Shown here in pieces: positions 1 to 64,000 of a DNA stretch of 64,000 bases; the stretch's first letter is position 1; each line of letters opens with the position of its first letter. Position numbers and translations under genes: made by a program. The notes under the pieces are model-generated. The model ran no database searches, was not told the DNA's origin, and worked only from the letters and a program-made list of their open reading frames with translations. Origin of the DNA: Henricia sp. BOLD:AAB3569 (lineage: Eukaryota; Echinodermata; Asteroidea; Spinulosida; Echinasteridae). The stretch covers positions 186,001-250,000 of the forward strand of contig JBBELK010000564.1 in assembly GCA_037783545.1 (NCBI GenBank), given 5' to 3'.

Positions 1-262
1 CATGCAAGTGTTGAAAAGTGACGGGGCCAGTACGCATCCCTGCCTAACTCCAGTATTAACTGGAAAAAAGTTAGAGACGCCACTGCCGCACTTTACAGCA
101 CTCTCTCTTCCAGAGTACAGGGAGGCGCTGAGATGCACCAACCGAGGGGGGATCCCGCGGGGCCCAAGGATCTTCCAAAGGGCATCCCAACTGACCGAGT
201 CGAACGTCTTTTTGTCGATGTAGGCTGCCATCAGCCTGGCATTCCTGTAAAAAGTCTACAAC
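1..262 (-). mobile_element. LINE reverse transcriptase fragment
   Basis: Read on the minus strand, this is the palm region of a non-LTR retrotransposon reverse transcriptase. It starts near AAYIDKKTFDSVSWDALW, continues with a GIPPRLV segment and ends at the left edge with GVRQGCVLAPSLFN, the conserved block 4 of LINE reverse transcriptases. The remainder lies outside the window. The reading frame is open throughout. It begins about 18 bases after the splice donor of the lectin exon at 280-495, so it is an insertion in the next intron of that gene. The clade (CR1, I or RTE-like) cannot be settled from 85 residues. Confidence 0.8.
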
Positions 263-279
263 ACTTTTGGTAAACTCAC

Positions 280-495
280 CTTGTGTGCAGAGGAATCCTG
301 ATTTGTCTGTACAGGACCGGAGCTCTATTTGCCACGGCGACACACCTGCCACCGTCTTGCCGTATAGCCTAACAGCAACACAGAGTTTGGTCTCATCCAC
401 CCAATCACCTTCGCCTGGTGGCTCCAGGCCCAGCCAGTTGAGGTCTTCACCATCACTGGACAGGTCCACTAGCTCCCAGATGCTGGAGTTGGTAC
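280..495 (-). CDS. C-type lectin exon, C-terminal half of domain
   Basis: 216 bases, flanked by acceptor CAATCTCTAG and donor GTGAGT. It encodes 71 whole codons from TNSSIWELVDL to SGFLCTQ and carries three of the domain cysteines. Entry and exit are both phase 1. Confidence 0.85.
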
Positions 496-1202
496 CTAGA
501 GATTGCACAAGAGGTTGGGGTTTTTTTAAAAGGCTAAAGTCACACATTCCTGGTTTTTTGTGCCGGTGGCGCTACGTTTGGACTTCGTAGTTAATTGTAG
601 TCAATCCTAGTTAGACAGTACTCAAACCTAGTGACCCGTCTTCAATCGTCCCGGTGAAGTTTTGCATGCAGTACTTTGACAGGATGAACTGGGAAAAATT
701 GAGATCATAGTAAAATGTACCAAGACCCTACTAGAGCCCTATTGGATCTTGGGGCTGCCGGTATAGCCGCAGTGGCCCATAGGGGGCCCCTAGTGCTGCC
801 TTGAGGAATCCTGTTAAAGCAGGACACTGCTGTTGCTTCTTAGGGGCATTCAACTTGCCCTTAGACTTCCTGGCACTCCTTGGTAGAATCGTGAGATCAG
901 AAATTCATCCCGGTTTGGAGCCAAAATCCTAGTCGACCGTAGCAGAGGGAGACCAGGACTCAACACCGGACCCTTATCGTGGACAAATATGAAGGAGCGA
1001 TCGAGTTGACCATACCCATTGACCCCATTTACATGAGAGAAATCGGTTCGTTCGATGAAGATTCCCAAAAACATGACATGCATGCGTATTGATAAAATAG
1101 ATGATGGAACTACAGTAAATTGCTAAAAATATAACATTACTAATTATGGAATTGCCCAGAGAATACTTGGGCCTTGAAGACCTTAATCATTTTTTGTCAT
1201 CC

Positions 1203-38886: not shown

Positions 38887-38982
38887 TCCCTCATGTTTTC
38901 CTGAGAACCCCGTATGCTTTTCTCTGATGAAGTTGCGGTACCCGCTACTAAATGATTCGAACCGGCTACTCAACACTGGCCA

Positions 38983-39058
38983 GCTCGGTGGTTGAGTGGT
39001 TAAGACGTCTGCCTAGTATGCAGGAGGTTGTGGGTTCGAGTCCCACCCAAGCACGCTA
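38983..39058 (+). mobile_element. tRNA-like sequence (pseudo-tRNA or SINE head)
   Basis: TGGTTGAGTGGTTAAGACGT (A box) and GGGTTCGAGTCCC (B box) with a good T stem. The acceptor stem has about two mismatches. Probably the head of a truncated SINE. Confidence 0.55.
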
Positions 39059-39586: not shown

Positions 39587-40898
39587 TGTATAAAGTTAAA
39601 TCAGATTGGGCAAAACAAACCCTAATTGATATTCAATCTCTCTGACCAAGCCAAATTTCTTGATCACTAGTAACATTTTTTTTCAAAAAAGCTTTATTCG
39701 TTGTATGAACTCTTTTTAATATTTACAGTTCCTTTACATAAAATTCTCACCTTTTGGTAATCACAACACAAGGAATGTATTGTAAAATTTTTGTCAAACC
39801 CTATACGCACACAGAAAAATAAATGGCAGTTACAATGTTTTATCATTGCTATATCCTGACGTAATATACTTCAGGGTAAATTTTTGCACAGATCCCGGTC
39901 TTTTGAGGAATGTTTCTAAATTCAACATGGCAACTTCCAGTGCATGAACCTTGAGCGTGTTTCTAATACGAGCACCGACATTAGGCCTACATGTTTTTTT
40001 GCCGGAGACAAATGCTGATTATTTGGCAAGTACGCAGCAGTTGGAATGACGTGCCTTATTAGACATGTGTTAGAGTACATTAACACTGAGCCATTTCGCG
40101 AGTAAACCTCGCTTTCAGAAAAAGCAATTAACGTGGACGGAATTCGGAGTAAAACGACGCACTGATAACTGCAGAATCATAAAAACGCTTTCTGCCCGTG
40201 TTGATTTTGTGGTTTTTTCTAGTGGACCATTTTACCCCAAATTCTTTCCACATTGCTTTTTCTGAAAGCGACGCGTGTCGAAATTACGCGCAAAATAACT
40301 CTGTGAATCTACCCTAATCAACTGTTTCTATACTGGGAAAATACTGTTGCGCGCACCCGCAAAAACCTTATCCGAGCAGTTTTTATCATGCAAGGCTGTT
40401 TCTTTTAGAAGGATACCGTTTCCCAAGTGGAAACACGCTCCTTTACTCCTGAAAACATTTGAACTTGCTATTTTGAATTTAGAAAGATTCCTTGCCACTT
40501 TAACTTGTTTTTCAAAGAATACTTCCACTTGGCAGTAAATACAGTAATTAATTTAGGTTCAATAGCTGTGCACTGTACTGCATGTGTACAATGTATGGTA
40601 CACTATAAACAACATGACAGTATTCTTGTAAAAACAATGTGAAAAAGACTACCACACAAGAAGCAGCTTGGTCAATCACACATATAGACCCTTTTCACTG
40701 GCGGCCATGAAAGGGGGCAGGTTTTTTAAAATGTAAATTAAGTGACAATAGTGCCTACTTCTTGTGCATGACGCACGTTGACAATGTGACTGCCCCCATC
40801 ATCCGATCGCGAGATGCCAACTTTCCCGGATTTTAAAGAAGACACGGAAAATAAGCTGATCTCCTTACTTTAGATACATCTATAAATCTCTGGGGTTG
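39587..40898. other. Gene-free stretch
   Basis: No gene or family recognised. A possible polyadenylation signal for the minus-strand splicing-factor gene (AATAAA complement) is near 39690. Confidence 0.4.
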
Positions 40899-41384
40899 TT
40901 AAAGGTAGAATACATTATTGGTATCTCGAGGAATCAGAAATGTACACATAATTTACACAATATAAACACGATGACGGTAGAAAACTTGCCCTGAAATGGT
41001 TTTGTCTGAAGTGCTCTTTGACTAGTATTTGAGAAATGAGCAAAATAATTATTTTTCGTCTTGCGAGACGTAAATTCATTTTGCCCCAAAACCACCTCGC
41101 CCTGGACCACCTCGCCCTAAAGCACTTCGCACAAAGGCCATTTCGCCCCAAAACCACTTTGTCCAAATGCCATCTCGCCCCAAATGCCACTTCGTGCACA
41201 GTAGTTCAGGGCGCAGTGTTTTTGGGGCGAAGTGACTGTAAACCATTTTTTGACTGTTTGCTCAAAAGTTAGATGAAGTACGGAGCTGATTTTTGCTCAG
41301 GTTGGTTTTAATCTTCAATCACACAGGGGGATGAAACTATTTGTAACGGTTTACCAATCATGTACATGTGTAGACTACCTTTAA
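40899..41384 (+). mobile_element. TTAA MITE, family B, copy 1
   Basis: TTAAAGGTAGAATACATTAT and ACTACCTTTAA form the ends, with TTAA at both borders. The interior has diverged tandem words of about 20 bases (CGCCCCAAAACCACTTCG type). It lies 217 bases downstream of the stop of the eMIC terminal exon. Copies 2 and 3 are at 42781 and 52618. Confidence 0.82.
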
Positions 41385-41601
41385 GAGACAATACAGGATG
41401 GTTCTCTAGTGTCAGGATTCACGAGATCAGTCATTTTCCAGGAAAGCTCTAGCAAAATCTGGGAGGGTTGGCAGCTCTGCATCATGCAAATTTGATTGCA
41501 GCGCAAACAACTCTGCTGCGACATTAAATTGACGTTTAAACCAACCTTTAAGCTTCTTCTCGTGTGGTAATCTACAAATACACTTAAGTTGTGGCTGCAT
41601 G

Positions 41602-41800
41602 TCACCGCTCGTAACTACTCCTGCTGTAGTAGCTACGAGACCTAGACCGTGACCGGGACCGTGATGAGCGCGACCCCAGGGGACTGCGCGACGACGGCGA
41701 TCGGCTGTAGGAGTAGCTGTCGTAAGAGAAGTAGGAGCTTTCGCTGGTGGTGGGGCTGGCAGCTGGCGAGCGATGGTAGGGAATGGGGAGTTTACGTGCA
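41602..41800 (-). CDS. Srrm234: Srrm234 terminal exon, second half of eMIC domain
   Basis: Acceptor TGTCTATCCACAG. Encodes SARKLPIPYHRSPAASP, a Tyr/Ser-rich stretch (SYFSYDSYSYSRSP), then RS repeats and SYYSRSSYER with stop TGA. The SARK-x-PIPY-x-R core is the most conserved part of the eMIC domain. It lies 10.5 kb after the first eMIC exon. Confidence 0.92.
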
Positions 41801-44800
41801 CTGTGGATAGACAGAGCAACAATGGCGGAATTAGCATCATATATCAATAAATGCAGCATCGTTTAAAATGCAGTAAAATCACTCCACTGCAAAACATGCT
41901 TTATTTTCTCTTGCCATACCTCATACATATAAGTTCATAAACAATAGTCCCATTCTATGTGCATGCTAGTACATGTATATACTCGCTATCAAATGCACAG
42001 GCATAGTGAAATAATTCCTGGCGTCCCGGCAATTAGTTTACTATGCATGCGCTTTACAAAGTAATCATGGAACTAATTCCCGGGTGTAACGCATATTGCG
42101 TGCAGTACTGGTATGTGACAGCACTGCGTGAAACTGCGAGTAACACTGTGCACCCGAGCTACATGTACATGAAACGATGGCTGCACATACACTACTCATA
42201 ATAAGTTAGGGATATTGGTGTGGTTCAATTTTTTTTCAAATGACTGTTTTCACCAATTTTTGTGACAGGGTGCGACTTTTACTCAGATACAATTATTGTC
42301 CAATCATATACAAAATCATTCAAGCGGAATGCACACCTGAATAAAATATCTGCGCACATCCCACAATATCCCTAACTTACATGTATTGTGAGCAATGTAT
42401 GTACAATTTTACTCATCGTTTTCCTGCGGTCAGTGTTTCTAAACCAGGTTAGAATATGTTTAAGGTATGGCAAAACAAAAATAACATGGTTTATTTTGGG
42501 TGATGGTAATATCAGCTCCCCTCGGTATAAGACGTTGATAAAATAGTTCCTTCAGCTTCTCCTCAGCAACTTATTTGCCAACTACTTCCAATACCCTGGG
42601 GAGCTAATATCAGCTATCCACCCTCAAACAATGTTACATTTGTATACTATTGCCTCCCCAGCAACAAAAACACACCAAAAAATGATGCTGCTTTTTTTTA
42701 GGAGAAAGGTTAGGCTGAAATCTTGGTGTGAGTGAAATCTTGGTCTGTCAAACCACTAGAAAATGGGCTAAAATATGAAGTTAAAGGTAGAATACATGAT
42801 TGGTATCTTGAGGAATCAGAAATGTTCACAGATTTACACATAACTTACAAAATATAAACACGATGACGGTAGAAAACGTCCCCTGAGATGGTTTTGCCTA
42901 AAGTGATAGTCTTTGAGAAATGAGCAAAACAATTATTTTTTGTCTCGCGAGACGTAAATTCATTTCGCCCTAAAACCACCTCGCCCTGGACCACTTCGCC
43001 CTGAATCACTTCACTCAAAGGCCATTTCTCCCCAAAACCACTTCGCCCAAATGCCACTTCGTGCACAGGCCGTGGTTTAGGGCAAAGTGGTTTTAGGGCG
43101 AAGTGACTGTAAACCATTTTTTGACTGTTTTCTGAAAAGTTAGACTACGTGCAAGTACGGAGCTGATTTTTGATCAGGTTGGTTTTAATCATGCATACCT
43201 TCAATCACACAGGGGGATGCAACTATTTGTTTACCAATCATGTATACTACCTTTAAGCTACAAGTTAAGTTAAGCATATGGTGGTGTATTGGTCAATGAT
43301 TTGCTGCATAATTATGATGGGAATGGGTTAGTGTTTGGCTTCCGAGTTAACATTATTTTTTTTGAGTGGATGATTTCTCTACTTTCACTGTCACAACAAA
43401 CCTAACTCCTAAGTCGTGTTAAAGCCACGATACATGTACATACATGTAATTTGCAGTGACCCAAAAATTTTACTTTGTGAGTTGACAAACTTGACTAACA
43501 AGTGTTGACAGCGAAGATAAGAAACACCACACGATTTTCTTCCGGTGGTACCTTTGTGGGAGAAATAGACTGCCGAAGTGAATACGTCATCTTTTGTTAG
43601 TTGCCTAGGCAATGGCTCTACACTAAAAATCACTTTACCGTGTCCCTGTGCTTTTGCAATGGTACTTTTTTCCTGACGGCCATGATGTTTAGAGCCAATT
43701 CGGCAGTCTATTGTCAACTGAAGGTTCTTTTTAAACTTCACAGGGTATCTCTTACTATTGCTGTAAACAGTTTGCATACAATGTTATCTGTTACAACTCG
43801 TTAAGTAAGTAAATGGGCTGTTAAACTGAATAAAAAAATGTTGCTGGAGAGACAATAAAAAGGATAATCTGTGCAAACAAAAAAACAAACAAATTATTTA
43901 AATAATGCAGCATGCCATTACGAATTGTGTTAGGCTGGATCCTAGGTAGCATGATGAAGCCAATTGCAATGAAGTCGTGTTGTTGATGGTTGTCATGATT
44001 TCAGAGATAATTGCTGTTGCACCGCCAAAATGCACACTGGAATCTGACCTTTAGTTGAACTTTTTATGAAATCAAAGGGCCTACTTGGGCTGCATCTGAA
44101 ATCATTAACTGTGGCATGAAATTTCACACTTGTCTAAAGGCCCGTCTACACGAGCCAACATTTGTTGACCATGCAACAAGGACCGACATGAAGTTGGAAC
44201 TTGTTGGGCAGTACATGGATGTGCCCGACCGTGCGAACCAACATGTTCCAGCATATCTCAACTGCAGTTGGTTGCTGCCTTCATGTGACAGGCGTTCTAA
44301 TCTGCTATTGGCCCATTTCTCCAACAAGCTCCAACAAAGTTGGGCGATAGGAACATGTTCATACGCATGTTCCAACTAGTTGGATGTTGTTGGACGCTGA
44401 CTGGAGTGACGTCCACACCATCCAACTTTTGGTCGGCCGACATCGTCAGACACGTGTTGGACCTTGTTGGCCAACAAATGTTGGTTTGTGTAGACAGGCC
44501 TTCATTTGTAATTGCAGGACGCAATCAATGAAATCAAACATTCAAACACTTCTCTCTAGCCTTTTTTTCAAGGCTATACACTCCAATGCACAAAGTGTAA
44601 CTGCTCTTTCAATAAGGGTGCTTAGAAAAGGCTAAGGTCAGAAAAGGTTAATGTAAGGTGGTTGAAGTGATGTTATTGTGCCCATACATGTATTTTATTT
44701 CAAATTCTTCAAGTTCAAAATTTCAGGTATTTTGAAGAAAATGCATATGTCGAAATTTGTAGTTAACGGGCAAATTGAGTTTTGTACATCATCATTTGCA

Positions 44801-47800
44801 GCAAATATAGAAAACTTGCTGTATAATTAGTGGCCTCAAGTTCCGACCTTAAAAGAGTCCGTTAGGGTCGGAACGTGATGAGGCCACTAATTGCTAAGCA
44901 GTACTATGCAACAGTTGTTGTATTATTATCAAAGTTATAAAAACAATGGTTGGCAATGCCCTTTTTTGCCTGTAAATATTTCGAAAACTATATGCCATAC
45001 TGACGGAATTTTGTAAAGAGGGTGCCAGTGCTTTTTAGACAGCGCCTTTAAAATTCCATCATAAATAAAACAAAAATTAGTAATAAACATTTCAGAATTA
45101 GCAGATGAAATTTAGAAAAAAATATTAGCCCTATATTAAAGTACTGTGGCTAATGTGAAGTGTTAAACACGTGTGCAAGTTAGTGCATCATGAATGAAAA
45201 GCTGACGGCGATTTGTTAAATTAGAAAAAGGTTAATGATGCCAACGGATGTGATTGGCTGGATGATATTATTAGCTGTAATTCAAACGTTAGTACAGCAC
45301 ACACTGTTATATTAATAAATTTGCGACTTGTGAACACTTTTAACCTGTAGATGGAGCCAAATAAAGCCGTGAATCTGAAAACATGTCAGTTAATTATACA
45401 ACGTAGTATGTGTCAATCAATCTTTGGCGTTGTGGCGTAGGCCTATGGGAAGCAGATAGATACATGCCGTATTCTACTCTCTCAAAGCATAAAAACATGT
45501 ATATTCCTAATAGGCAGACTCTAGGGGAAACTTTGTATAGTAACAGTTAAAGGAGAAATGCAACTCGTACATTATTTGTATAACAAAAACCAAAGAAATA
45601 TAACCGACAACAAAGTGACTTGAACGTCATGAAGAATGACAACTGCAGCAATTATGGGCGCTGCCATTTTGGGCAAAGAATGACGTCTTTGCATTCAACT
45701 TTTTTGAGTATTGCCTTAAGAGTTGTACGCAGAAACATAATTTCTTTTTGGACAACAGGGCAGCGTCCATACAAAAAGGTATCGCTGCAATGGTCACTCT
45801 TTATTAAGTTCGTATCCACTTTACACTGAATCTTATTTCTTGCTCTTTGTATATATAAGAATAATGCGAGAGATGCACTTGTTCAGAACAATGGGCGAGG
45901 TCACAGTTCTGTGTGTGTTACGTGTTAGTGTTAGTTTAACAGATCATGTTAACAAATCTGTTAACACGGCATTAATCTCGACCTCTAATTGAATGTCTAG
46001 GTTAACACCATGTTAATTTTCTTCACTGTACACAGGGCAAAGTCACAATTCTATGTTACAATGTACGTGTTAGTGTTAGTGTAACAGATCTGTTAACTTA
46101 ATCAGAATTGTGACCTCGGAACAAACAACTTTTGTTTCATGGGTATAATTTGTCTTTCGTGCCACGAAATACATTTTTCGTGGCACAAACTTGGCGCCCG
46201 CACATTGCTGACGAGCCTGTGCCTTTAATATGTTTTTTTTTTCAGATGTAAGGAGCCGTCCAAAGTTGTCAACGTTTTCACGGAGCTACAAAGAAGGGGG
46301 AGGGGGAGGAGGCGGGGGCGGAGGGGTCCAGGGGTCCTTCACATACACTGTAAAATGTTGACATTTCATGGTAGTGACAACAAAAACTGTCAATAAGTAG
46401 TATTTTGGGGGAGGGAGTTGAGTTTTGAAAAATACTACACTCTGTAGAACTGTGAAAATTTTGACAACTTTGGACAGCCCCTAAAGAACACTGCAAACTA
46501 AGATTGGCAGCAATATTTTGAAAAATGTTACTGGTTAAAAGTGGTTAATAATAATTACTAAGTAGTAGTAATGGAGATGACGTGAGCATGATGAGCTGAC
46601 CTGTTAGAAACAAAGGCAGTTTGTTATTAATTAGTAGAAATAATTACATGTACTGTAACACAAATACAAACAGAATGCAATAAGCTAGTGGCTTTTTACG
46701 GTTGCTGTTGTTGAATGTCGTCACTTTGAACAAGTTGTGTATTTTTGTAAGATGGTTTACACTCAGTGCACGGCTTGGTTTAGTGAAACAAATTTATTCA
46801 GCCTCCATGTTTTTCCCCTTTGGGTACACAAGTTTTAAAGTTAGTTTTCATCAAGGCCTAGTAAAAAAAGAAATCACCGGTTTGGATACAGTTCAACAAA
46901 TTGCAAGGCTTGTTAAAAGACCGAAGTTTGATTTTTATGGCCAGTTTGAGTCAGTGTTTAATTTGAAATTAAAGTAATGCAGAAATTGTGCTATTTAGAC
47001 GGTGGAACACATTGACAAATACTAACGCAACAGTGACCACATCAGGGTTGTAGTCGAGTCCATAAAATCACAAGTCCCGCAAAAGTCCGTCACAAGTCCA
47101 GTAACAAGAAGCAAAGGATGAACACGCACAAAAGAATGCCTTTATGGAGTTCACTTTTATAGCTTGTGACTTGAATCAAGACTCGGGGACTTGTGGTGGA
47201 CTTGTTAAGGTTTGTAAGGACTTGTTTATACATGTATGGACTCGACTACAACTCTGGACCACATGTATGGTTTTAAACAGTCGCTTGGCAGAACTTATTG
47301 GCTGCCATTGTTTTCTGATCTAACAAATAGAAAATGTTAGAGAAAAGCATGCAAGCGGACATAAAGGAGACAGATAGCGTGCAGCCACCACAGTCATTTT
47401 CTTTTCATTTTACACAGAGCTACAGATAAAATGTTAACCGTCCTATAGACCGTATCGAATAGCCGCCATCTTGTGGGGCAGTTTCTTTGTTCCTTGAGGA
47501 TAATGCATGCATGGTTGCACATATTGTCGTTACATTGTTGAACCGGTTCAAGTAACAAAAGGTGCCCAACAAGATGGCAGCTATTCGCTACGGTAGATAA
47601 ACAAAAATGCAAGTGTTTTGTTTTAGAGGATTAAATGGCACCAATGTTGAAGCCCTCAACCAGCATTTGGGTAGAGTCCAGGGCTGTGTAGTACCAGCTG
47701 CGCCAACTACATGTATGCCAATGCTTGCAATGTTCTCTAACAGCTGGTGCCCTGGATTTTATAGACGAGTGCACAAAAACAATGTGTCCAGTGGCAAACA

Positions 47801-50800
47801 TTGGCATATGTGTAGAGGGAAATGCAGCCCTGAACTGCATTCCATTTACGAGAACATTTGCAAATGTTGGCAACGTTCGCCAATAATTTCGAGCGAAACA
47901 AGTTTTGCGCAACTAACATTGGCCAACAAACTTTTTTGGTTGTGTGATACATGTGTTCGCAAGTCACTGTTTGAAAATGGTGCACAGCTACAAGATGGAA
48001 AAAAACCTAAGCAGATGATGCTTTCCCAGTTTTGGAAACTGTTCGTTTATCATTGAGAATACGCGCTCAGTGGTAACGTCGCACATTTTCTCTAAAAATT
48101 GGCTTGCAGTGAGCAACATTTACAACTTTGCTATGCTACAGCACTTGGCGCTGCCATTTGGACATCAATTTGATTGCAACAATCCGTTCCAAATTTGGCA
48201 AAACGTTGGCGCCAATATTTGTTAACATTTGCATGCCAAGGTTGTAGTTGAGTCCATCACGTACAAGTCCTCACAAGCCTTCACAAATCCACCACAAGTC
48301 CCTGGGTCTTAATACAAGTCAAAAGCTATTCAAATGAACTCCAACAGAGACATTCTTTTGTGCGTGTTCATCCTTTGCTTCTTGTTACTGGACTTGTGAT
48401 GGACTTGTGCGGGACTTGTCACGGACTTGTGATTTTATTGGCTCTGGACTTGACTAAAACCCTATCGCATACATGTAAGTGGAATGCAGCCCTGATGAAT
48501 TAAGTGGAACGCAGCCCTGGTAAATTACAAAAAAGAAAAGAAATGAGTGTGCTGAATCACAAGAGGACCAGATATTAGCTTTCATGAGATGCACACCGCG
48601 GCCATTCCATTGAGCATCATTAATTAGGTTTCAGAATATCATTAGAATTCATGCACGATTTTGTGTTAAGTGAAAGCCAAAGAAATGAATTTCCTCTGGA
48701 AATAAAAGCAAGACCTTTTATTCCATGCTCCATACGACATAAAATTAAACATGTGACCTGCTAATAATAAACATTTAAACTAACTTCATTTGGCTGTTAA
48801 TAATAATAATAATGGTGGATACTTATATAGCGCACATGCCGCCCCGTGCGGGGGGTGCTCCTGGCGCTGTTGCCATTATTACCGCTGCCATCAGGAAATC
48901 ACCAGAACCATTTCGCTTCAACTAGGTGGCTACCTGGCTAAGGCGCACAACCCTATCAGCAGTTAGATTGTGGCATTCCCCCCTAACAGTTCCCCATATA
49001 TCGCTCGGGTTGACGAGGCAATTGAGATTAAGTGTCTTGCTCACGGACAAAAACACGTTGGCACGAGTGGGGCTCGAACCTATAACCATTTGATCACGAG
49101 CACGGCTGTATACCCACTAGACCACACGTGCTGTTCACAGTACGCATGCAGTTGTAACTTCATTTCACAAAATACTGCACAACTTATTATTACGCAAGCC
49201 GTGCAACAATCTTTCAATAATTCTACTCACGCCATGTCAATTTCAAAGTTGCGCAAGCTACGCAACTTTTCATGAAATTGGCTAATGGATGTAGTTTAAT
49301 TGTCCAGAGCGAAAATTGCGCCACGTTAGAACATTTCGTTTGATAAAATACTTTAAAATTACTGGACGAATTGTTGTGCGGGAATGGCTATAAACTGGAT
49401 CAGTCTACTGCTATTGAAATAAAAATAATGATAAAAAATTTCCAATAATCTTAAAAAGTACAATGCTCTAAAACTCAACATAATTTTAGTGGCACAAAAA
49501 ACAAATGGCTACTTACAAAACCCAATGCGAAATAACTCCAACAGTGAAGCATGCAATATATTATGAGAAAACATAGATGAAGCATGCACTAAATGAATAC
49601 TGTAATACAGGCAAGGTATAAATGCATATGCAACAGCAAAAGACAACATGCATTCATGAGCGTATGCAGTAATGTGAATAATGCTTGCTCATGTGTATGC
49701 ATGAAAAAGCACTCAAATGAACGCCTAACAACATGCAAATTGCACAGTCGAAAAGCAAAGCACATACATGTACATGTATGAATAATGCACAAGCACATAT
49801 ACAGCAGAAACATTCAAAACGGTAAATGAGTCAAATGTCACATATTTCTACAGGGAGCACCAGCATTAAACTGTCATTGCTGATGCGGTGCGCAACACCT
49901 TAACCGTTGTCTGGTGTTTCTATTGGAGACATTACCGATTACTTGATGCGCGTGCACAGAAGTTGGAACAACGCGCTCTATTAAAAAGCGTTATCAACTA
50001 TTTGTGTGACATCCGACTCAATTCACCAAAGCGGGTCACAAATAACTAACTAGTTAAGAAGAATGCAGAAATTAACAAGCCAGAAAACAGAACAATTTCA
50101 TCCTTTTAACCTCAAAGTTTCAAAGCTCTTGGTTAAAATTTGGAGAACTATGTTTCAATGTATGACAATGTTGTTACATGTAGCTTTGGCCTGTGATTTA
50201 TGAATCAATTTTCTATTCACACGCCTAGCATTATGTGTATCTAACTATATGTTATTGTTATTTTAATAATGCATTATTTATGGAGAACTGAAGTGATGCC
50301 TGCTGCCACACAGACGGTTCGAAACATTAACCAGTCAGTTAAAGCAATCACTGCAAAAACATGGCAAAAAGGTTGTCTGATTTTTTTGTTTAGAACAACC
50401 TGAAAACTGACAAAGGATGACACACGGACTTCAGTTCTCTATTTGCAGGCAAAATTTGATGATAATGTTTGTTCGGTCTTTTTTGTTTTTCAAAATCACA
50501 AGAGTCGGGAAAATTTGTATAACCCGAACTTCCAACACAAAACTTTTTTTTTCAGAACTGAAAACTGAAGAACTGTATATTTTCCTGGAGCAAGTGTACA
50601 CAAACATTTTCATCAAAAAAAATATTATTTGCAAATGAGTTGGTTAGTGGCATTGAAAATGTTTAGCTGAAAACTGTCAGCGCTGTCAGTGGATGGCGTC
50701 AGAGCTAAGCACGAGTCTGCAAGATTCTCGCAAGATGCTTGGGTGGAGAAAACAAATGAACGAACAAATCCAAGATGGAGGTTCTCCATCATTATACACA

Positions 50801-53800
50801 CACATGTAAAAAGCTGACAAGTCCAGGTGAGCAATTTTGAGTTTATCTCCGGTAACGATCCCGCCCCCTGGATCGAGAACGGCTGCGACTGTAGCTCCTA
50901 TCTCTTCTGTCGTAGTAATGGCGGTCGTCTCTGCTCCTGTCTGGAGACCTTTGTCGATACAAGATAGGGTTAGAAGAAAACAATGCAACAAAAACACTAC
51001 AGTACTAAATTTGAAATATAGAAGATTTTGTACTGGTTTGGATGGGGAGAGAGTCCGATGACTGGCTCCTTTTATTCCCCCCGCAAGACTGACATCTCAG
51101 TTAGGCCAGGGTCAGGAATTACGACCTCCCAATTTAATGTAGTATTACTATTGCATACAAATACCAGATTTTGTAATCATATTCGGTGAACAACAAGAAT
51201 TCTCATAATTGAGTCAATTATAATTGAATTATGAATGATCACAAACGTTTTGTGCATTTCAAAGCTATGGATTGAAAGAAAAATAGTATCAGAGCCATAT
51301 TGTGTTGGTTGTTTTCCCCCGCAGCGAGAAATAGACTCATTGTAGCTAACCCGCTATAGTTTTTGATTTGTGAAACCACAGTAATGCCACTAACAGTTAC
51401 GGATATAGCTCATCAACATATGCGTGCGTCGGCTTGCGGAACCTCTCTAGACGATGTGCCCTCCGACGTCACAACAAACCAAAACATGCCCGGCATTTTT
51501 GCGCACGCATCATGTTTTACATAAATTTCATCACCGTAACCGGTTTGGGTCGGTTTGGAATGCGTGCGCGTGTAATGCGTTTTGTGTGTAAACATAACAC
51601 GCGCGATCGTCACAATGCTAAGCATGATGCGTGCGCACAACGCCAGGCAAGATTTGCTTTAGATGTAAACAAAGGGCACATCGTCTCTATTGATTGCTTT
51701 CGATGACGTAGAACATCCGGGAATGTTTGGTGGTCAACAGTCACGCGCGTACACGCGCGCACCAATAGACGCACATGAACACGCGTAAAAAAATACTCAC
51801 CAGCGTTATTTTTAATTCGAAGATGCGGCACGCACGCGTTGTAATACGTTCAAATTATTGAGCATGCACTCGGCTTGTAAAAACTAAAGTGCTTTTACTT
51901 GATTGCGGCCTGAAGTAATGCGTTTTTATCTTTCTCGATACAACAGCCATGGCGCAACAACATAAAGCAAGTTCAAGCAACAGAGGTAAGTGCAACCAAT
52001 GCGCTTTTCTTGCTCTTTTTGCCGGTTATTACTTGAGCCACGTGGGTCATGAAAAATGCCCACCAAAATGGTGGATGGAAGGGGTGACGTCACCGGAAAG
52101 CAATCAATTATGGAAGGATGTTTTACATTTAATTGCGCTGGTGTCCATCTAGGATACACCAGTATAGCACACACACCGTACACAACTTGTAGTTTCACAG
52201 TTCATTACAGAAAGATCACAAATTAAAAAAATATTTCCAATGAAACTCCCCTTTACAACACACATCAGCATATCCAATTTAGATATCAAACACATAGCAA
52301 ATCACCAAATCTTTTCATTTTCATATCGCCTGATTTATCACAACAAGCCTACCTGGTTATTCTCCGGCGATCCAGAAAGCTTGGGGAATTTCGTCGTTTG
52401 CGGATCGGGGAGAAATCTTTTCTCTTCTCTGGTTCGGCCTGATTCTTGACTGCCCGATTCGGTGACTCTAGAATTCGTGGGTAGCTGGGAGAGCGAGAAC
52501 GCCTGCGCGATATGGGGGTCCGTGATCGCGTTCTGCAAAGGTTTGGAAGAATTATTTTACCTTAAAATGTAAAAATATGCATTGTTTGTAGATATCAAAA
52601 TGAAGGAATTTTTCTTTTTAAAGATAATATACATGATTGGTAAACTGTTACAAATAGTTTTATCCCCCTGTGTGATTGAAGATGTGCATGATTAAAGCCA
52701 ACCTGAGCAAAAACCAGCTCCGTACTTCGTCTAACCTTTGAGAAAACAGTCAAAAAAGGGTTTGCAGTAATTTCGCCCCAAAACCACTTCGCCCTGAAAC
52801 ATTTCGCCCTCAACCATGGCGTGTGCACGAAGTGGTTTTGGGACGAAGTAGCACTTGGGCGAAATGGTTTTGGGGCGAATTGAATTTTCGTCTCATGAGA
52901 CGAAAACTAATTGTTTTACTCATTTCTCAAAGACTATAGCACTTTAGACAAAACCATTTCAGGGGAAGTTTTCTACGGTCATCATGTTTATATTGTGTAA
53001 GTTAGGCGTAAATCTGTGAACATTTCTGATTTTCGAGATACAACCAACGCCGATGATGTGGCATATTATCGGTAATGTGCATTATAAACCATACAATTTA
53101 CAACTTCCCTAGAGAGCGCCCATATCAAGCGGTGAAAATGTGAGATGCTGCCCTGCTAAATTTTAGACTCAGTCATGGAGAACACTGTGGATCCTTTCAA
53201 ACGTTGTACGGTATGTTGTAGGATATAGTAAACTATTACTTGCTGGACTTTCACTTTACTGCTTTATTCATAAATACCTTAGACAGTTTACGCATCCCTA
53301 TTGGCTGAGACCACGTCACGTGGCCAGTCTTAAATGGACGATAAAGACCGGCCGGCCAGTTTTAAACACTTTCTTGCCTGGCTAGCGTTTGTGCCCGTGC
53401 ACTATCAGCGCATATGGAACATTTTACGCATCCCTATTGGCCGAGACCACGTCACGTGGTCAGTCTTAAATGGACGATAAAGACCGGCCGGCCAGCTTTA
53501 AACACTTTCTTGCCTGGCTAGCATTCGTGCCCGTGCCCTATCAGCGCGTATGGAACATGCACACGCACACAGAAACTGCACGTGCCCAAAGGAAACTGGG
53601 CGAAGTACCCCGTCGTGTGCGTGCGCGTACAACATGTCTGCATTACGCGTAATGCACGCGATCGAAAAAAAAAACTCGACACATAGCTAGCAGTTTGAAC
53701 GAAATACACGATGTGTACAAAAATACAATGCAAAATATGGCAAAACAGCCATATTTCGAACTGTAGCCATGTAATCCAAACATAGCCTAACACTACCAAT

Positions 53801-53894
53801 GAAAGAATGGCCCACTGACCTGCTGCGACTTCTTGTTCGTCTACGTGGGCTTGGGCTGCGAGAGCGCCCTCTTCTAGAGGGTGGGGACCTAGCA

Positions 53895-53926
<32 letters not shown>

Positions 53927-55695
53927 ACAGTGAAATATAGAAGATTTGCAATGCCAAAAATATCAACCAAACATATCGGCCATAAGCGGCCTGAAGCCTA
54001 GCGCCCATTAATGTTTCCCAATCCTAGTCCTTAAGAAATCACACAGAGGCAGCAATTTCCTTTTGCGGTCATAACGCACCTCGTGTCTCTCCTCCTCTGC
54101 GATTTATCTGACTCTCGTTCCCGCGGCGATTTGCGGTCCGATCTCGGAGTTGGCGATCGTGACTTGCGCCTGCTGCTGCCATTGCGGGCGGGGCTTACAG
54201 AGCCATGCCTACCCCTCTTGCGGGAGCTGGAGCGTGATTTCCTAGATCTTCTGGGCGAGGGGCTACGAGAGCTTGTTGAAAAATAAATAAATAAATTTGG
54301 TCAACAACAACAATTTTATTGATGTGCTAATAACAAATATTGTTAATGATTGATTCTTTTATAGCACACCAGGGTTTTTCACTAGCTGGTTTCTCTGGGC
54401 AGTGTGCCCGGACAGAATCATCAGATAGAGGTGCCATTAACGGCCAGACAAAGATTATCAGCCGGGACAAAACGCGGCCACCGGGACAAAAATAATCCAT
54501 TTTCCCCTCGAATACCACAGAGTCATTCCAAAATTAGGTGTAAAGTTGCCAAACATGATTTGCTTGCCGCTGGTGTCATCATCGTTCACTTATCACTCAT
54601 ATTTATCATGTTTGTCGCATTGCTGACCCAATCACGGCCATGACAGCTGCACACATCTGTTTTGAACAGCGCCCTCACATGGCAAACGGGGATTCATTGA
54701 GTTGGTCACCAAACCAAAAGATTCCGACTATTCTGAGATAATCTTTAGGTCCGGCAGCCGTCAGTCCATTGCACTTTCTGTAAGAATGTAAGTAAGTCAC
54801 TGTACATGTACCTCAGCTTAAACCTTGATATCTACTTGTACCCCAGATGGTGTGTCAAGCCTATTTGTGACCATTTTTAGGGTGAAAACTGTTTGTTGGG
54901 CGAGTGTGGGCCGAGTCTTAACTGAAGTGTGGTGCCTTCTTAACCGCTATTAGATCCTACATATCGCGCGTCATGTCTTCATGTTAAAAACAGCGATATT
55001 TAGGGTCCAAGTTATTCGGACTAAAAATAAGCAGCCCCCCACTAGCAGTCCGTGTTGTGACTCACCTCCTGCTGTCAGAACCCGAGTAGTCACCACTATC
55101 CGAGCTGTAGTCTGATGGTGAATCGCTGTCATGCTGGTGTCGATGGCTTTTCTTTTCCTCAGATCTGGTGATGATATTCAGAAAATAATTGGACACCAGA
55201 TCCAGAAAAATCAAACAAGTTTGATTTGCTCGGGTATATGGTACGTGTACGGTCAGACCGGCCCGAATTATTTCAGCACACTCCTTTCCGGTATCTGGTC
55301 TGATGATCCGATTATCTGGTAAATCGCAAAGGTGTGCGGCGGGCTTATAAGGGTGGATTTCCGAGATACATTATATGTATACATATATGGACAAATTCTG
55401 CCAAAATCATGTAGACATGCAAGGCAAGGTTTTCAAGAACTATCGGACGAAGTTTTGGTGAGAATTGGGCAGTAGCCATGTTTTAATGTGTGCCTGTCAA
55501 AGTTGCTGGGTAGCCATATTGGTAAATCATACTTCTGTCTATGGGGGATATCCCCATAGTTCTAAGGGTACATGTAGGGGCATTCATATTTTTGGAATGC
55601 ATAGGTTTTAAGTTAACATTCACCATGTTTACATCACATGTACTTACTTTCTGCTGTGGTGCTTCTTATGTTTGCGTTTGGATCGGCTACCAGAC
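41602..55695 (-). CDS. Srrm234: SRRM2/3/4-type splicing factor with eMIC domain (3' half)
   Basis: Minus-strand exons 55648-55695, 55066-55164, 54080-54271, 53820-53888, 52353-52532 and 41602-41800 join with GT-AG sites, all in the same phase, into 261 codons plus stop. The first four encode a KHKKHHSRK basic tract, an acidic-serine stretch and RS-rich sequence. The last two encode RKRRNSPSFLDRRRIT followed by SARKLPIPYHRSP, then Tyr/Ser-rich and RS repeats. This matches the human SRRM4 segment RKRRRDSPSHLEARRIT-SARKRPIPYYRPSP, the eMIC domain that promotes inclusion of neural microexons. In vertebrates it sits in SRRM3 and SRRM4; invertebrates studied have one SRRM2/3/4 locus. An extra in-phase last exon (50843-50948) offers an eMIC-less end. 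N-terminal exons, including the expected CWF21 region, were not found and probably lie beyond the right edge. Confidence 0.9.
42204..42383. mobile_element. Small MITE with AGTTAGGGATATTG ends
   Basis: AAGTTAGGGATATTGGTG at the left is inverted as CACAATATCCCTAACTTA at the right. Non-coding, about 180 bases, in the last intron of Srrm234. Confidence 0.75.
42781..43256 (+). mobile_element. TTAA MITE, family B, copy 2
   Basis: Same orientation as copy 1 (40899-41384). Ends TTAAAGGTAGAATACATGAT and ATGTATACTACCTTTAA, TTAA at both borders, interior with CGCCCTAAAACCACCTCG-type words. Confidence 0.82.
43257..44134. other. Intronic gene-free stretch
   Basis: Inverted words ACTGCCGAAGTGAATACG and GGCAGTCTATT around 43565-43710 hint at a small hairpin. 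Nothing else recognised. Confidence 0.4.
44135..44502. mobile_element. MITE with GTCTACACGAGCCAAC ends, copy 1
   Basis: TAAAGGCCCGTCTACACGAG and the complement of AAGGCCTGTCTACACAAACC form the ends; CCAACATTTGTTG follows on both sides. A longer copy, split by a SINE, is at 57738-58594. Confidence 0.85.
44826..44893. repeat. Short hairpin
   Basis: ATTAGTGGCCTCA and GTTCCGACC are inverted as GGTCGGAAC and TGAGGCCACTAAT around a loop of about 20 bases. Confidence 0.85.
44894..45879. other. Intronic gene-free stretch
   Basis: AT-rich; no gene or repeat family recognised. Confidence 0.4.
45888..46120. repeat. Inverted repeat around GTTAACA words
   Basis: GAGGTCACAGTTCTG at the left and CAGAATTGTGACCTC at the right pair, with repeated CGTGTTAGTGTTAG and AACAGATCTGTTAAC words between. 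Confidence 0.6.
46135..46230. repeat. Half copy of the GACGAGCCTGTGCC hairpin family
   Basis: TTTCGTGGCACAAACTTGGC and GACGAGCCTGTGCCTTTAAT match one arm of the hairpin at 55811-55951. Confidence 0.65.
46249..46483. mobile_element. MITE with GTCCAAAGTTGTCAAC ends
   Basis: GGAGCCGTCCAAAGTTGTCA and its near complement at the right end, flanked by TA on both sides (Tc1/mariner-like target). A G-rich tract (GGGGGAGGGGGAGGAGGCGG) lies inside at about 46296-46340. Confidence 0.75.
47044..47275. mobile_element. GTAGTCGAGTCC inverted-repeat element, copy 1
   Basis: GGGTTGTAGTCGAGTCCATA is inverted at the right as TGGACTCGACTACAACTC; diverged CACAAGTCC words fill one half and GGACTTGTG the other. 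Confidence 0.8.
47640..48237. repeat. Unassigned repeat with GGAATGCAGCCCTG words
   Basis: CCAGGGCTG near 47680 and AATGCAGCCCTG near 47821, 48484 and 48508 suggest members of another inverted-repeat family shared with 3062. Borders are not clear. Confidence 0.35.
48238..48472. mobile_element. GTAGTCGAGTCC inverted-repeat element, copy 2
   Basis: Same family as 47044-47275 but inverted relative to it (ends AGGTTGTAGTTGAGTCC and GGACTTGACTAAAACCCT). Partial relatives lie at 33371 and 57079. Confidence 0.8.
48795..49138 (-). mobile_element. tRNA-derived SINE, minus strand
   Basis: Read on the minus strand, the head has an A box (TGGTCTAGTGGG) and B box (GGTTCGAGCCC), then the word GTGAGCAAGACACTTAATC, and ends in GCGCTATATAAGTATCC with an ATT tail. 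It lies in the last intron of Srrm234. Confidence 0.85.
49139..50842. other. Intronic gene-free stretch
   Basis: Many ACATG and TGCAT words but no gene, element or clear tandem repeat was recognised. Confidence 0.4.
50843..50948 (-). CDS. Srrm234: Srrm234 alternative last exon without eMIC
   Basis: Acceptor GTATCGACAAAG, in the same phase as all other exons of the gene. It encodes SPDRSRDDRHYYDRRDRSYS and then RSRSRSRGRDRYRR followed by TAA. Lying between the two eMIC exons, it would give a protein with an ordinary RS-type end if used. Joined to 53820-53888 it reads smoothly (TRSRSRSPDRSRDD), which suggests that eMIC exon 1 is skipped with it. I see no AATAAA close downstream, so its 3' end is not defined. 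Confidence 0.82.
51440..51700. repeat. Imperfect hairpin in Srrm234 intron
   Basis: ACGATGTGCCCT and its complement AGGGCACATCGT bound it; inside, GCGCACGCATCATG pairs with CATGATGCGTGCGC. Confidence 0.75.
52353..52532 (-). CDS. Srrm234: Srrm234 exon, first half of eMIC domain
   Basis: 180 bases, acceptor CTTTGCAG, donor GTAGGC. Encodes TRSRTPISRRRSRSPSY, a charged linker and then KRKDFSPIRKRRNSPSFLD and RRRIT, the start of the eMIC core. The codon spanning the donor plus the next intronic triplet read AGG TAG, so intron retention would end the protein at once. Confidence 0.9.
52618..53045 (-). mobile_element. TTAA MITE, family B, copy 3 (inverted, end lost)
   Basis: Starts TTAAAGATAATATACATGAT and runs in the opposite orientation to copies 1 and 2; CGCCCCAAAACCACTTCG words are inside. 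The other end stops at TTTCGAGATAC without the terminal repeat. It begins 86 bases upstream of the eMIC exon 1 acceptor. Confidence 0.78.
53285..53545. repeat. Tandem duplication, period about 129 bp
   Basis: Two nearly identical copies with TTTACGCATCCCTATTGGC, CCACGTCACGTGG and AAAGACCGGCCGGCCAG. It lies in the intron before eMIC exon 1. Confidence 0.9.
53820..53888 (-). CDS. Srrm234: Srrm234 exon, RS domain 2
   Basis: 69 bases, acceptor TTTTTTGCTAG, donor GTCAGT. Encodes SPPSRRGRSRSPSPRRRT and RSRS. It can splice in phase either to 52353-52532 or directly to the alternative last exon. Confidence 0.88.
54080..54271 (-). CDS. Srrm234: Srrm234 exon, RS domain 1
   Basis: 192 bases, acceptor TTTTCAACAAG, donor GTGCGT. 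Encodes SRSPSPRRSRKSRSSSRKRG and then SRRKSRSPTPRSDRKSPRER. Confidence 0.88.
55066..55164 (-). CDS. Srrm234: Srrm234 exon, acidic-serine segment
   Basis: 99 bases, acceptor CATCACCAG, donor GTGAGT. Encodes SEEKKSHRHQHDSDSPSDYS and then SDSGDYSGSDSR. Confidence 0.85.
55648..55695 (-). CDS. Srrm234: Srrm234 exon, basic tract
   Basis: 48 bases, acceptor TTATCCTCAG, donor GTAAGT. Encodes SGSRSKRKHKKHHSR. This is the most 5' exon recognised in the window. Confidence 0.8.
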
Positions 55696-55810: not shown

Positions 55811-55951
55811 TTAAAGGCACAAGCTCGTCGTTGCGCGCGTGAGGCCAAATTCGTGCCACAAATTACGCAGCTCCATGCCTTTGCTATGGAGCTGCGCATT
55901 TCGTGGCACGAATTTGGCCTCATGCGCGCAATGACGAGCCTGTGCCTTTAA
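55811..55951. mobile_element. Hairpin MITE with TTAA borders
   Basis: A 141-base almost perfect hairpin: TTAAAGGCACAAGCTCGTC and its complement at the ends, GGCCAAATTCGTGCCAC and GTGGCACGAATTTGGCC inside. It lies just upstream (5') of the first recognised Srrm234 exon. Confidence 0.88.
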
Positions 55952-59491: not shown

Positions 59492-59930
59492 TGTCTGTTT
59501 TCAATACTGGAGAGACTTTTTCACCAGGATCATAACTCTGTGCAATGCCAGTTATCTTCTCTCAAAACAAAAAAAATATCATAAGACAGATCTAAGAAGA
59601 TAACTTAAGCAACAAATAGTGCAACAACATACCTTTCTGAAAACAGTACACTGTGTATAAATTTCCTATTTAAGGTATGTAACATAGGACACATACTTTG
59701 TGACATTGTTTGGTGTCCTTGTTACGTACGGTATATTGGATATTTGCACATAGGGCTTTCAGGAAGGTATGTTGTGGCACTATTCGCTGCAGTTCTTTAG
59801 CTGAAGTTATCTCCTTAGATCTATCTTAAGACATTTCTTTTGTTTTGAGAGAAGATGAATGACATTGTACAGAGATATAATCCTGGAGGAAAAGGTCTCT
59901 CCAGTATTGAAAACAGACACATATATGGCA
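59492..59930. repeat. Large imperfect hairpin, arms about 180 bp
   Basis: CTGTTTTCAATACTGGAGAG, CTTCTCTCAAAACAAAA and AAATAGTGCAACAACATACC on the left are inverted on the right around 59640-59740. Confidence 0.8.
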
Positions 59931-60627
59931 ATGAAGCTCAGTGGAAAATGTCTCCAATGTATTGAAACAGAGTCTACACATTAAGGAATACCTGTGTTTT
60001 TTACTCTTTTTTCCTGATCTGAGAGCAGCAAATTAACGACAAAGAAATGGGAGAGAAAGTGTTAATATCAAGTTTGTGTTATCCTGTTAATAAAAACCGC
60101 TTGTTAAAGCGACTCTAGTTTAGCAGTTTTTAGACCCGCATAATGATGTGACAAAGGGTTTTACAAAAGAAATAAAGTAACTATACACCGATTCTGTTAG
60201 CAAAACTCAAGAAAACAAACACTGAGTGACTATTAATAAAGCCATGAAGTGCAAAGGCTAAACACAGCAAAACATTTGACGCACCACCACCACAGTTGAC
60301 AAAAATGCGAGCAATATTTTTACACAGCAACTTTGTGTTACATTCCAAAAGCACTACCAAAACCATTTGACAACAAAAATGTGCAATGGTGAGAGAGGAC
60401 TGGAAATGAACCAAAGCAACTGAGTACATGTACATGTAAATATCAGCACCAAAGAATTATGATTTTGTTTTTAAAAGAAAACCCAAACGTAAAACTACAA
60501 GAACATGCACGGAAAACACAAATACACTGTAAATAAACAAATTATGCATGCATGCTTTAATTAATAAGATAAAAATCCATTATCAATCCACATAAATGTA
60601 CTATGACAATGTGCAAATACCAATCTG

Positions 60628-61028: not shown

Positions 61029-61528
61029 CCTGTATCTTGTTTTGCCAGAATTACAAGTTGGCTGACAGGTATTACATGTACATCTGCAACCACTTTTCAA
61101 GAAAAATTAAGTTTTATTAATATTCTCAAAGCTTCAGGAATGAATTACAAAATATGTGGATTGATCTGGCAAATCAGAGCAACACTACCAAAAAAAAAGG
61201 GAAAAGTGACAAGCAGTGGGAAAACACGACAATAACTCTGTGGCTGAGAAATTGTAAAAAGTTTGTACATGAAGACAATGTGGATGAAGCTATGGGAAAG
61301 TATTAAACAGAGACTGCGTTCAGACAGCGTTTTAAAATCGTAGAATGAATAAAAAAATATGAATTTGATCTGGTGAAACCTTCAGGCTAAGACATTGTCA
61401 AAAATGTATGCTGTGTGGAGACTAAATTTTGGGGACCATATTTCCATCCCCAAAATTCGAAGTCTCACTTCAATTGTGATAAACAGCGTCAGCATCATAC
61501 TATAGACCCGATTCTTACTAGAGAAATA

Positions 61529-64000
61529 GCTTCATTCGACGAAGAGATCGCTTCATTCGACGAAGAGATCGCTTCATTCGACGAAGAGATCGCTTCATTC
61601 GACGAAGAGATCGCTTCATTCGACGAAGAGATCGCTTCATTCGACGAAGAGATCGCTTCATTCGACGAAGAGATCGCTTCATTCGACGAAGAGATCGCTT
61701 CATTCGACGAAGAGATCGCTTCATTCGACGAAGAGATCGCTTCATTCGACGAAGAGATCGCTTCATTCGACGAAGAGATCGCTTCATTCGACAAAGAGAT
61801 CGCTTCATTCGACAAAGAGATCGCTTCATTCGACAAAGAGATCGCTTCATTCGACAAAGAGATCGCTTCATTCGACAAAGAGATCGCTTCATTCGACAAA
61901 GAGATCGCTTCATTCGACAAAGAGATCGCTTCATTCGACAAAGAGATCGCTTAATTCATTCGACAAAGAGATCGCTTCATTCGACAAAGAGATCGCTTAA
62001 TTCATTCGACAAAGAGATCGCTTAATTCATTCGACAAAGAGATCGCTTAATTCATTCGACAAAGAGATCGCTTAATTCATTCGACGAAGAGATCGCTTCA
62101 TTCATTCGACGAAGAGATCGCTTCATTCGACGAAGAGATCGCTTCATTCGACGAAGAGATCGCTTCATTCGACGAAGAGATCGCTTCATTCGACGAAGAG
62201 ATCGCTTCATTCGACGTAGAGATCGCTTCATTCGACGTAGAGATCGCTTCATTCGACGAAGAGATCGCTTCATTCGACGTAGAGATCGCTTCATTCGACA
62301 AAGAGATCGCTTCATTCGACAAAGAGATCGCTTCATTCGACGAAGAGATCGCTTCATTCGACAAAGAGATCGCTTCATTCGACGAAGAGATCACTTCATT
62401 CTACAAAGAGATCGCTTCATTCGACAAAGAGATCGCTTCATTCGACAAAGAGATCGCTTCATTCGACAAAGAGATCGCTTCATTCGACAAAGAGATCGCT
62501 TCATTCGACAAAGAGATCGCTTAATTCATTCGACAAAGAGATCGCTTAATTCATTCGACAAAGAGATCGCTTAATTCATTCGACAAAGAGATCGCTTAAT
62601 TCATTCGACAAAGAGATCGCTTAATTCATTCGACGAAGAGATCGCTTAATTCATTCGACGAAGAGATCGCTTCATTCATTCGACGAAGAGATCGCTTAAT
62701 TCATTCGACGAAGAGATCGCTTAATTCGACGAAGAGATCGCTTCATTCGACGAAGAGATCGCTTCATTCGACGTAGAGATCGCTTCATTCGACGAAGAGA
62801 TCGCTTAATTCATTCGACGTAGAGATCGCTTCATTCGACGAAGAGATCGCTTCATTCGACAAAGAGATCGCTTCATTCGACAAAGAGATCGCTTCATTCG
62901 ACAAAGAGATCGCTTCATTCGACAAAGAGATCGCTTCATTCGACAAAGAGATCGCTTAATTCATTCGACAAAGAGATCGCTTCATTCGACAAAGAGATCG
63001 CTTAATTCATTCGACAAAGAGATCGCTTAATTCATTCGACAAAGAGATCGCTTAATTCATTCGACAAAGAGATCGCTTCATTCGACAAAGAGATCGCTTA
63101 ATTCATTCGACGAAGAGATCGCTTAATTCATTCGACAAAGAGATCGCTTAATTCATTCGACAAAGAGATCGCTTAATTCATTCGACGAAGAGATCGCTTC
63201 ATTCGACGAAGAGATCGCTTCATTCGACGTAGAGATCGCTTCATTCGACGTAGAGATCGCTTCATTCGACGAAGAGATCGCTTCATTCGACGTAGAGATC
63301 GCTTCATTCGACAAAGAGATCGCTTCATTCGACAAAGAGATCGCTTCATTCGACGAAGAGATCGCTTCATTCGACAAAGAGATCGCTTCATTCGACGAAG
63401 AGATCACTTCATTCTACAAAGAGATCGCTTCATTCGACAAAGAGATCGCTTCATTCGACAAAGAGATCGCTTCATTCGACAAAGAGATCGCTTCATTCGA
63501 CAAAGAGATCGCTTCATTCGACAAAGAGATCGCTTAATTCATTCGACAAAGAGATCGCTTAATTCATTCGACAAAGAGATCGCTTAATTCATTCGACAAA
63601 GAGATCGCTTAATTCATTCGACAAAGAGATCGCTTAATTCATTCGACGAAGAGATCGCTTAATTCATTCGACGAAGAGATCGCTTCATTCATTCGACGAA
63701 GAGATCGCTTAATTCATTCGACGAAGAGATCGCTTCATTCGACGAAGAGATCGCTTCATTCGACGAAGAGATCGCTTCATTCGACGTAGAGATCGCTTCA
63801 TTCGACGAAGAGATCGCTTAATTCATTCGACGTAGAGATCGCTTCATTCGACGAAGAGATCGCTTCATTCGACGAAGAGATCGCTTAATTCATTCGACGT
63901 AGAGATCGCTTCATTCGACGAAGAGATCGCTTCATTCGACGAAGAGATCGCTTCATTCGACGTAGAGATCGCTTCATTCGACAAAGAGATCGCTTAATTC
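61529..64000. repeat. 21/25-bp minisatellite, runs off the right edge
   Basis: Unit GACGAAGAGATCGCTTCATT plus C (21 bases) with GACAAAGAG and GACGTAGAG variants, and a 25-base form in which CTTAATTCATTC replaces CTTCATTC. More than 100 copies lie in the window. A rare TCACTTCATTCTAC variant at 62391 recurs at 63404 in the same neighbourhood, showing a recent higher-order duplication of 1013 bases. Confidence 0.97.

What the first reader, a model, noticed from the sequence alone, without database searches (positions are those of the whole stretch)
41602..55695. SRRM2/3/4 locus with a split eMIC domain and a competing last exon
Seen: two exons (52353-52532, 41602-41800) spell RKRRNSPSFLDRRRIT plus SARKLPIPYHRSP, matching the eMIC core of SRRM3/4. 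A third exon (50843-50948) with its own stop lies between them and enters in the same phase. Known: eMIC drives neural microexon splicing, and non-vertebrates studied have a single SRRM2/3/4 gene whose eMIC form arises by alternative processing. Inference: this locus keeps the ancestral two-product design. Using 50843-50948 gives an RS-only splicing factor; skipping it gives the neural eMIC factor, which needs a 10.5-kb splice over the competing last exon.
Basis: partly seen in the sequence, partly recalled or inferred. Interest (0 to 1): 0.92.

Follow-up and report, generated by a model that had tools for sequence, protein, structure and literature searches.

The report
Invertebrate microexon regulator gene, two endings
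This stretch holds the end of an animal gene that probably makes two versions of a splicing protein, one of them able to splice tiny exons in nerve cells; the layout is real but matches one already described in flies, so it is a good new example rather than a surprise.

Summary
On the minus strand, exons 52353-52532 and 41602-41800 join in phase 2 into an eMIC domain: Pfam PF15230 SRRM_C 6.8e-15, against 3.1e-07 for the first exon alone, no hit for the second alone, and no hit in nine shuffles and the reversed sequence. A third RS-coding exon with its own stop (50843-50948) lies in the 10.55-kb intron between them, in the same phase. CpG o/e is 0.957, unlike a vertebrate.

[quoted passage not shown] Mouse Srrm4 also has its last intron inside the conserved region.

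The acceptor at 41800 has part of the code reported for eMIC-dependent exons, so self-promotion is conceivable but untested. Neural use, poly(A) sites and the Cwf21 end could not be tested.

The parts
59992..60018 (-).
   Evidence: Seen by eye, bounds. Acceptor 98.1th percentile, weak donor gtattc at 91.6th. UGC within 20 nt, AG exclusion zone 63, loose branch point. One of 10 microexon-sized candidates on both strands, whose cut-offs I set just under E0's own scores; second of the 10 in RS-like score after E1. No transcript or relative available.
55648..55695 (-). Exon E1, 48 nt, Lys/Arg-rich
   Evidence: Phase 2 both sides; acceptor 98.8th, donor 98.9th percentile
55066..55164 (-). Exon E2, 99 nt, Ser/Asp-rich
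   Evidence: Phase 2, 3n; donor 99.9th, acceptor only 82.8th percentile
54080..54271 (-). Exon E3, 192 nt, RS-rich
   Evidence: Phase 2, 3n; donor 99.2th, acceptor only 82.4th percentile
53820..53888 (-). Exon E4, 69 nt, RS-rich
   Evidence: Phase 2, 3n; top of 8 candidates in the minus-strand internal-exon scan
52353..52532 (-). Exon E5a, 180 nt, first half of eMIC; expected common donor at 52353
   Evidence: PF15230 31.3 bits alone; second of 8 in the internal-exon scan
50843..50948 (-). Exon E5b, 106 nt, proximal competing last (or poison) exon: 34-aa RS tail and TAA
   Evidence: Composition test; weak acceptor, 80.3rd percentile; only two donors scoring 1.5 or more within 1500 nt of its start
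50842..50847 (-). Candidate variant poly(A) signal GATAAA overlapping the E5b stop, with a TGTGTGTGT tract within 60 nt downstream
   Evidence: variant signal, no chance control done, weak evidence
41602..41800 (-). Exon E6, 199 nt, second half of eMIC, RS tail and TGA
   Evidence: Joined to E5a gives PF15230 55.9 bits; acceptor 98.3rd percentile
41801..41881 (-). E6 acceptor region: UGC near the AG, 79-nt AG exclusion zone, CTAAT branch point, pyrimidine tract
   Evidence: 12 of 7015 AGs (both strands) meet all four criteria, which I set after seeing this site; E6 is the only one of the 8 gene acceptors to do so

Best explanation
This is the 3' end of an invertebrate Srrm234 (SRRM2/3/4 pro-orthologue) gene. 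SHOWN: an eMIC domain split by a phase-2 intron; a stop-bearing RS-coding exon inside that intron, readable in the same phase; listed internal exons all multiples of three. INFERRED: the donor of the first eMIC exon (52353) splices by default to the near, weak acceptor 50948, giving a general RS-type splicing cofactor with only half an eMIC domain. In neurons the near exon is skipped, the donor is joined to the far, stronger acceptor 41800, and the complete eMIC protein recruits early splice-site factors to microexons. Skipping could depend on an ELAV-type protein as in flies, but that step is borrowed from the fly.
For: Pfam SRRM_C on the join, with half-domain, shuffle and reversal controls. 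Exon phases and lengths. Splice-site ranks: E5b weak (80.3rd percentile), E6 strong (98.3rd). E5b is an RS-coding frame far above simulation. Fly Srrm234 has the same order: first eMIC exon with a common donor, proximal stop-bearing exon, distal eMIC exon (PMC8797185 sections 6 and 18 and passages). The mouse Srrm4 exon 13 probe begins at coding nt 1521, the third base of codon 507, inside conserved residues 478-525, consistent with the same phase-2 intron (PMC3464207 passages). A human SRRM4 tail recalled from memory aligns 23 of 32 identical across the junction. CpG o/e 0.957 fits a non-vertebrate.
Against: No transcript, tissue or relative sequence could be examined. The Cwf21 end lies outside the window; 10 of the 13 upstream minus-strand ORFs of at least 60 aa were scanned and none hit it. 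No AATAAA within 2119 nt after the E5b stop or 1902 nt after the E6 stop. UUUNUUU density around E5b is 3.6 per kb (4 sites) against 2.0 in the window without the tandem array, and 0 in 500 nt before and 1 kb after E6, so the fly ELAV code is not clearly present. E4 could also join E5b or E6 directly in frame.
Confidence: 0.78

Rival explanations
1. One reading: the RS form splices E4 (donor 53820) straight to E5b, leaving out E5a, and the eMIC form uses E5a plus E6.
For: The frame allows it: acceptors take phase 2 and E5a is 3n.
Against: E5a has a strong acceptor (98.7th percentile) and donor (99.4th), and in the fly the first eMIC exon holds the common donor for the counted endings.
Confidence: 0.12
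2. E5b is not a last exon but a poison cassette exon that is spliced onward, lowering eMIC protein outside neurons by an early stop. (Compatible with the best explanation's choice of acceptors; differs in what the near choice yields.)
For: Fly isoform G uses the proximal exon this way; no AATAAA or ATTAAA within 574 nt after the E5b stop.
Against: No good donor follows it: within 1500 nt of its start only two reach a score of 1.5 (2.0 and 1.9). E5b carries a 34-residue RS tail that looks selected as protein.
Confidence: 0.2
3. E5b is a decayed or chance RS-like frame and the gene has one ending, E5a-E6.
For: Weak acceptor (80.3rd percentile); RS repeats are simple in composition, and plus-strand tandem-array frames score higher.
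Against: Composition far above 100 simulations, and beaten on the gene's strand only by frames inside E6; phase, place and stop match the fly proximal exon.
Confidence: 0.1

Closest known systems
Drosophila Srrm234 (CG7971) 3' end (PMC8797185)
   Different: The fly's last three exons and two introns span about 1.2 kb (minigene interval) against about 10.9 kb here; the fly proximal exon adds four residues (inferred) against 34 RS-rich residues here
Vertebrate SRRM4 / SRRM3
   Same: eMIC core sequence; mouse Srrm4's last intron inside the conserved region, apparently phase 2
   Different: Vertebrates restrict eMIC by transcription of separate genes; here a stop-bearing exon lies inside the intron
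Vertebrate SRRM2
   Same: RS/Lys-rich body (recalled, not tested)
   Different: SRRM2 lacks eMIC (PMC10551640 passage)

Membership tests
SRRM2/3/4 (Srrm234) with eMIC | eMIC / SRRM_C domain above Pfam's gathering score | tested here: met
   55.9 bits against 27, with controls
SRRM2/3/4 (Srrm234) with eMIC | Cwf21 domain at the N terminus | tested here: inconclusive
   Window ends before the 5' exons; no Cwf21 hit in 10 of the 13 upstream minus-strand ORFs of at least 60 aa; shorter exons were not scanned
SRRM2/3/4 (Srrm234) with eMIC | Arg/Ser-rich body before the eMIC | tested here: met
   E3, E4, E5a translations
Non-vertebrate eMIC alternative last exon | Stop-bearing proximal exon between the first and second eMIC exons, same phase | tested here: met
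   (sequence only)
Non-vertebrate eMIC alternative last exon | Both endings used, eMIC ending neural | not testable with these tools
   No transcript data, and no genome held for this window
Non-vertebrate eMIC alternative last exon | Own poly(A) site for each ending | tested here: inconclusive
   No AATAAA within 1.9 kb of either stop; ATTAAA at 575 and 289 nt; variant GATAAA at E5b
ELAV-controlled choice as in fly | UUUNUUU cluster near the proximal exon | tested here: inconclusive
   4 sites in E5b plus about 500 nt either side, 3.6 per kb against 2.0 background; none in 500 nt before E6

The most novel reading that the evidence does not exclude
The eMIC protein promotes its own eMIC ending. 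The E6 acceptor carries four of the features reported for eMIC-dependent exons (UGC near the AG, long AG exclusion zone, CUAAY branch point, pyrimidine tract), while the competing E5b acceptor lacks the UGC. A 27-nt microexon candidate with a UGC just upstream (E0) sits in the same gene. Once switched on, the neural form would lock itself in and add a microexon to its own protein: a self-sustaining splicing switch, not mentioned in the passages I saw. Against it: the fly's eMIC-dependent exons have extremely weak 3' splice-site regions and short flanking introns, whereas the E6 and E0 acceptors rank high (98.3rd and 98.1th percentile) and the intron before E6 is 10.55 kb. Odds lowered from 0.15 to 0.12 on rechecking this.
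Probability: 0.12. Interest if true: 0.7.

Novelty: new member of a known kind. Interest (0 to 1): 0.38.

Why it matters
It is a sequence-level case of the two-ending Srrm234 design in an unnamed, non-vertebrate-looking animal, with the competing exon at the same place inside the eMIC domain as in flies. If the animal is a deuterostome, that would support this exact exon order, and not only the domain, dating back to early bilaterians. It also offers a simple testable idea, positive self-regulation of the eMIC ending.

Tried and rejected
A search of the whole genome failed because none is held. Internal-exon scan: 8 phase-2 candidates on the minus strand, of which only E4, E5a, a shorter version of E5a, and E1 had a positive RS score. 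That scan missed E2 and E3 (acceptors below its cut-off) and E0 (donor below its cut-off), so it is not exhaustive. Inverted repeats as a looping device: copies of one dispersed repeat at 52618-53041 and 42780-43280 are inverted to each other, but they enclose both E5a and E5b, so they do not explain a clean E5b skip; set aside as mobile-element remains. UGC alone is not special: 4 of 8 gene acceptors have it, against 838 of 3395 minus-strand AGs. A PDB search with the eMIC core gave one chance-level hit, E 0.63. Related eukaryotic loci were not sought, because the collections on hand are prokaryotic, viral, phage or plasmid; the species stays unknown.

The 2019 paper that defined eMIC (Torres-Mendez et al., Nat Ecol Evol) is not held; I know it only as cited, so whether it already shows this exon order in deuterostomes is unknown to me. 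Paper searches. Of PMC8797185 I saw the abstract, sections 4, 6, 10, 11, 18 and 21 whole and passages; of PMC3464207, PMC10551640, PMC12626424, PMC13281805 and PMC8553928 only passages.

Full report
Observation. The gene lies on the minus strand. Corrected exon limits are E1 55648-55695 (48 nt), E2 55066-55164 (99), E3 54080-54271 (192), E4 53820-53888 (69), E5a 52353-52532 (180), E5b 50843-50948 (106, stop TAA) and E6 41602-41800 (199, stop TGA). A candidate E0, 59992-60018 (27 nt), joins E1 in frame. Read this way, every acceptor takes phase 2 and every internal exon is a multiple of three, so any of them can be skipped without breaking the frame. The E5a-E6 join makes RRRIT-S-ARKLPIPYHRSP, the serine codon being split AG|T.

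Is it more than chance? Yes. The join scores 55.9 bits on Pfam SRRM_C (PF15230), E 6.8e-15. E5a alone scores 31.3 bits, E6 alone nothing, the E0-to-E5a-E5b product 26.9 bits (just under the gathering score of 27), and a product joining E4 to E6 nothing. Nine shuffles and the reversed sequence, 10 of 10, give no hit. The SARKLPIPY continuation follows one of 3398 minus-strand AGs read in phase 2. E5b's RS score of 39.2 exceeds the maximum of 14.3 in 100 simulated 64-kb strands and is beaten on its own strand only by four frames inside E6, though tandem-array frames on the plus strand reach 49.3. Splice-site ranks, by a matrix that I wrote from memory, put E5b's acceptor at the 80.3rd percentile of minus-strand AGs and E6's at the 98.3rd.

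What it is. The eMIC domain marks SRRM3/SRRM4 and the Srrm234 gene of non-vertebrates (PMC8797185, introduction). The window's CpG observed/expected ratio of 0.957 does not look vertebrate (general knowledge). I could not name the species. The Cwf21 end is outside the window, so the family call rests on eMIC plus the RS body; 10 of 13 upstream minus-strand ORFs of at least 60 aa gave no Cwf21 hit.

How it works. In Drosophila, the proximal exon either ends the transcript at its own poly(A) site or acts as a poison exon, and the distal exon carries eMIC (section 6). [quoted passage not shown] Deleting both terminal exons removes only the last four residues of isoforms A/G (section 18). The window has the same order: E5a, E5b, E6. 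The RS product then keeps the first eMIC half. In the fly only proteins with the complete domain promoted short neural exons, so the half form is expected to be inactive on microexons. In the mouse, the Srrm4 exon 13 probe starts at coding nt 1521, the third base of codon 507, inside conserved residues 478-525. If the probe starts at the exon edge, that is the same phase-2 intron. Thus the split looks ancient and not peculiar to this locus.

Regulation. The fly uses Elav/Fne, with putative UUUNUUU sites (section 11). Here such motifs are only slightly denser round E5b (4 sites, 3.6 per kb against 2.0) and absent in the 500 nt before E6: inconclusive. No AATAAA follows either stop within 1.9 kb; ATTAAA comes 575 nt after the E5b stop and 289 nt after the E6 stop, the latter inside a dispersed repeat copy. 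A GATAAA overlaps the E5b stop with a GU-rich tract within 60 nt downstream, a weak hint of an own 3' end.

A bolder lead. eMIC-dependent exons in the fly have long AG exclusion zones, UGC near the acceptor, UCUC-type pyrimidine tracts and strong CUAAY branch points, features shared with mammalian targets (section 10). The E6 acceptor has UGC, a 79-nt zone, CTAAT and 75% pyrimidines. Twelve of 7015 AGs in the window meet all four criteria, 8 of the other 11 being copies of one repeat by eye, and E6 is the only one of the 8 gene acceptors. The criteria were set after seeing E6, so this is a description and not a test. E0 has UGC, a 63-nt zone and a looser branch point. Against the lead: true acceptors are enriched for these features anyway; UGC alone is in 4 of 8 against 838 of 3395; and the fly's eMIC targets have extremely weak 3' splice-site regions and short introns, unlike E6 and E0. 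The main text of PMC8797185 does not hold 'autoregul' or 'feedback'. Two searches showed no listed title or abstract start on self-regulation of eMIC genes (20 of 30 papers listed, 12 of 3,792 listed), which is far from proof of absence.

Verdict. It is a clean new member of a known design, of moderate interest, with one testable new idea.

Noticed in passing
61522-64000: Tandem array of a 21-bp unit, about 112 copies, reaching the window's end; it lies on the 5' side of E0, so within the gene if the gene's first exons lie beyond 64000.
   Followed up: no
26131-29914 (+): LTR-type retroelement: ORFs with RNase H-like and integrase zinc-binding domains above cut-off and reverse transcriptase and integrase core just below it, over 27309-29170; the flanking ORFs at 26131-26970 and 29303-29914 gave no match above cut-off.
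   Followed up: partly
1-255 (-): Reverse transcriptase fragment, RVT_1 2.9e-09.
   Followed up: no
40898-41391, 42780-43280, 52618-53041: Three copies of one 400-500 bp dispersed repeat around E5a, E5b and E6; the first two are direct to each other, the third inverted.
   Followed up: partly
55811-55951 and 59516-59894: Inverted repeats near E1 and E0: 66-nt arms with a 9-nt gap, and 95-nt arms with a 189-nt gap.
   Followed up: no
38982-39054 (+): tRNA-Thr (AGT) gene beyond the 3' end of the SRRM gene, found by two programs.
   Followed up: no
53283-53558: 136-bp unit duplicated in tandem, 94% matches, in the intron between E4 and E5a.
   Followed up: no
1256-1534 and 71-571 (-): ORFs that resemble C-type lectin domains by eye (recalled pattern); Pfam gave no hit at 0.01.
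   Followed up: partly
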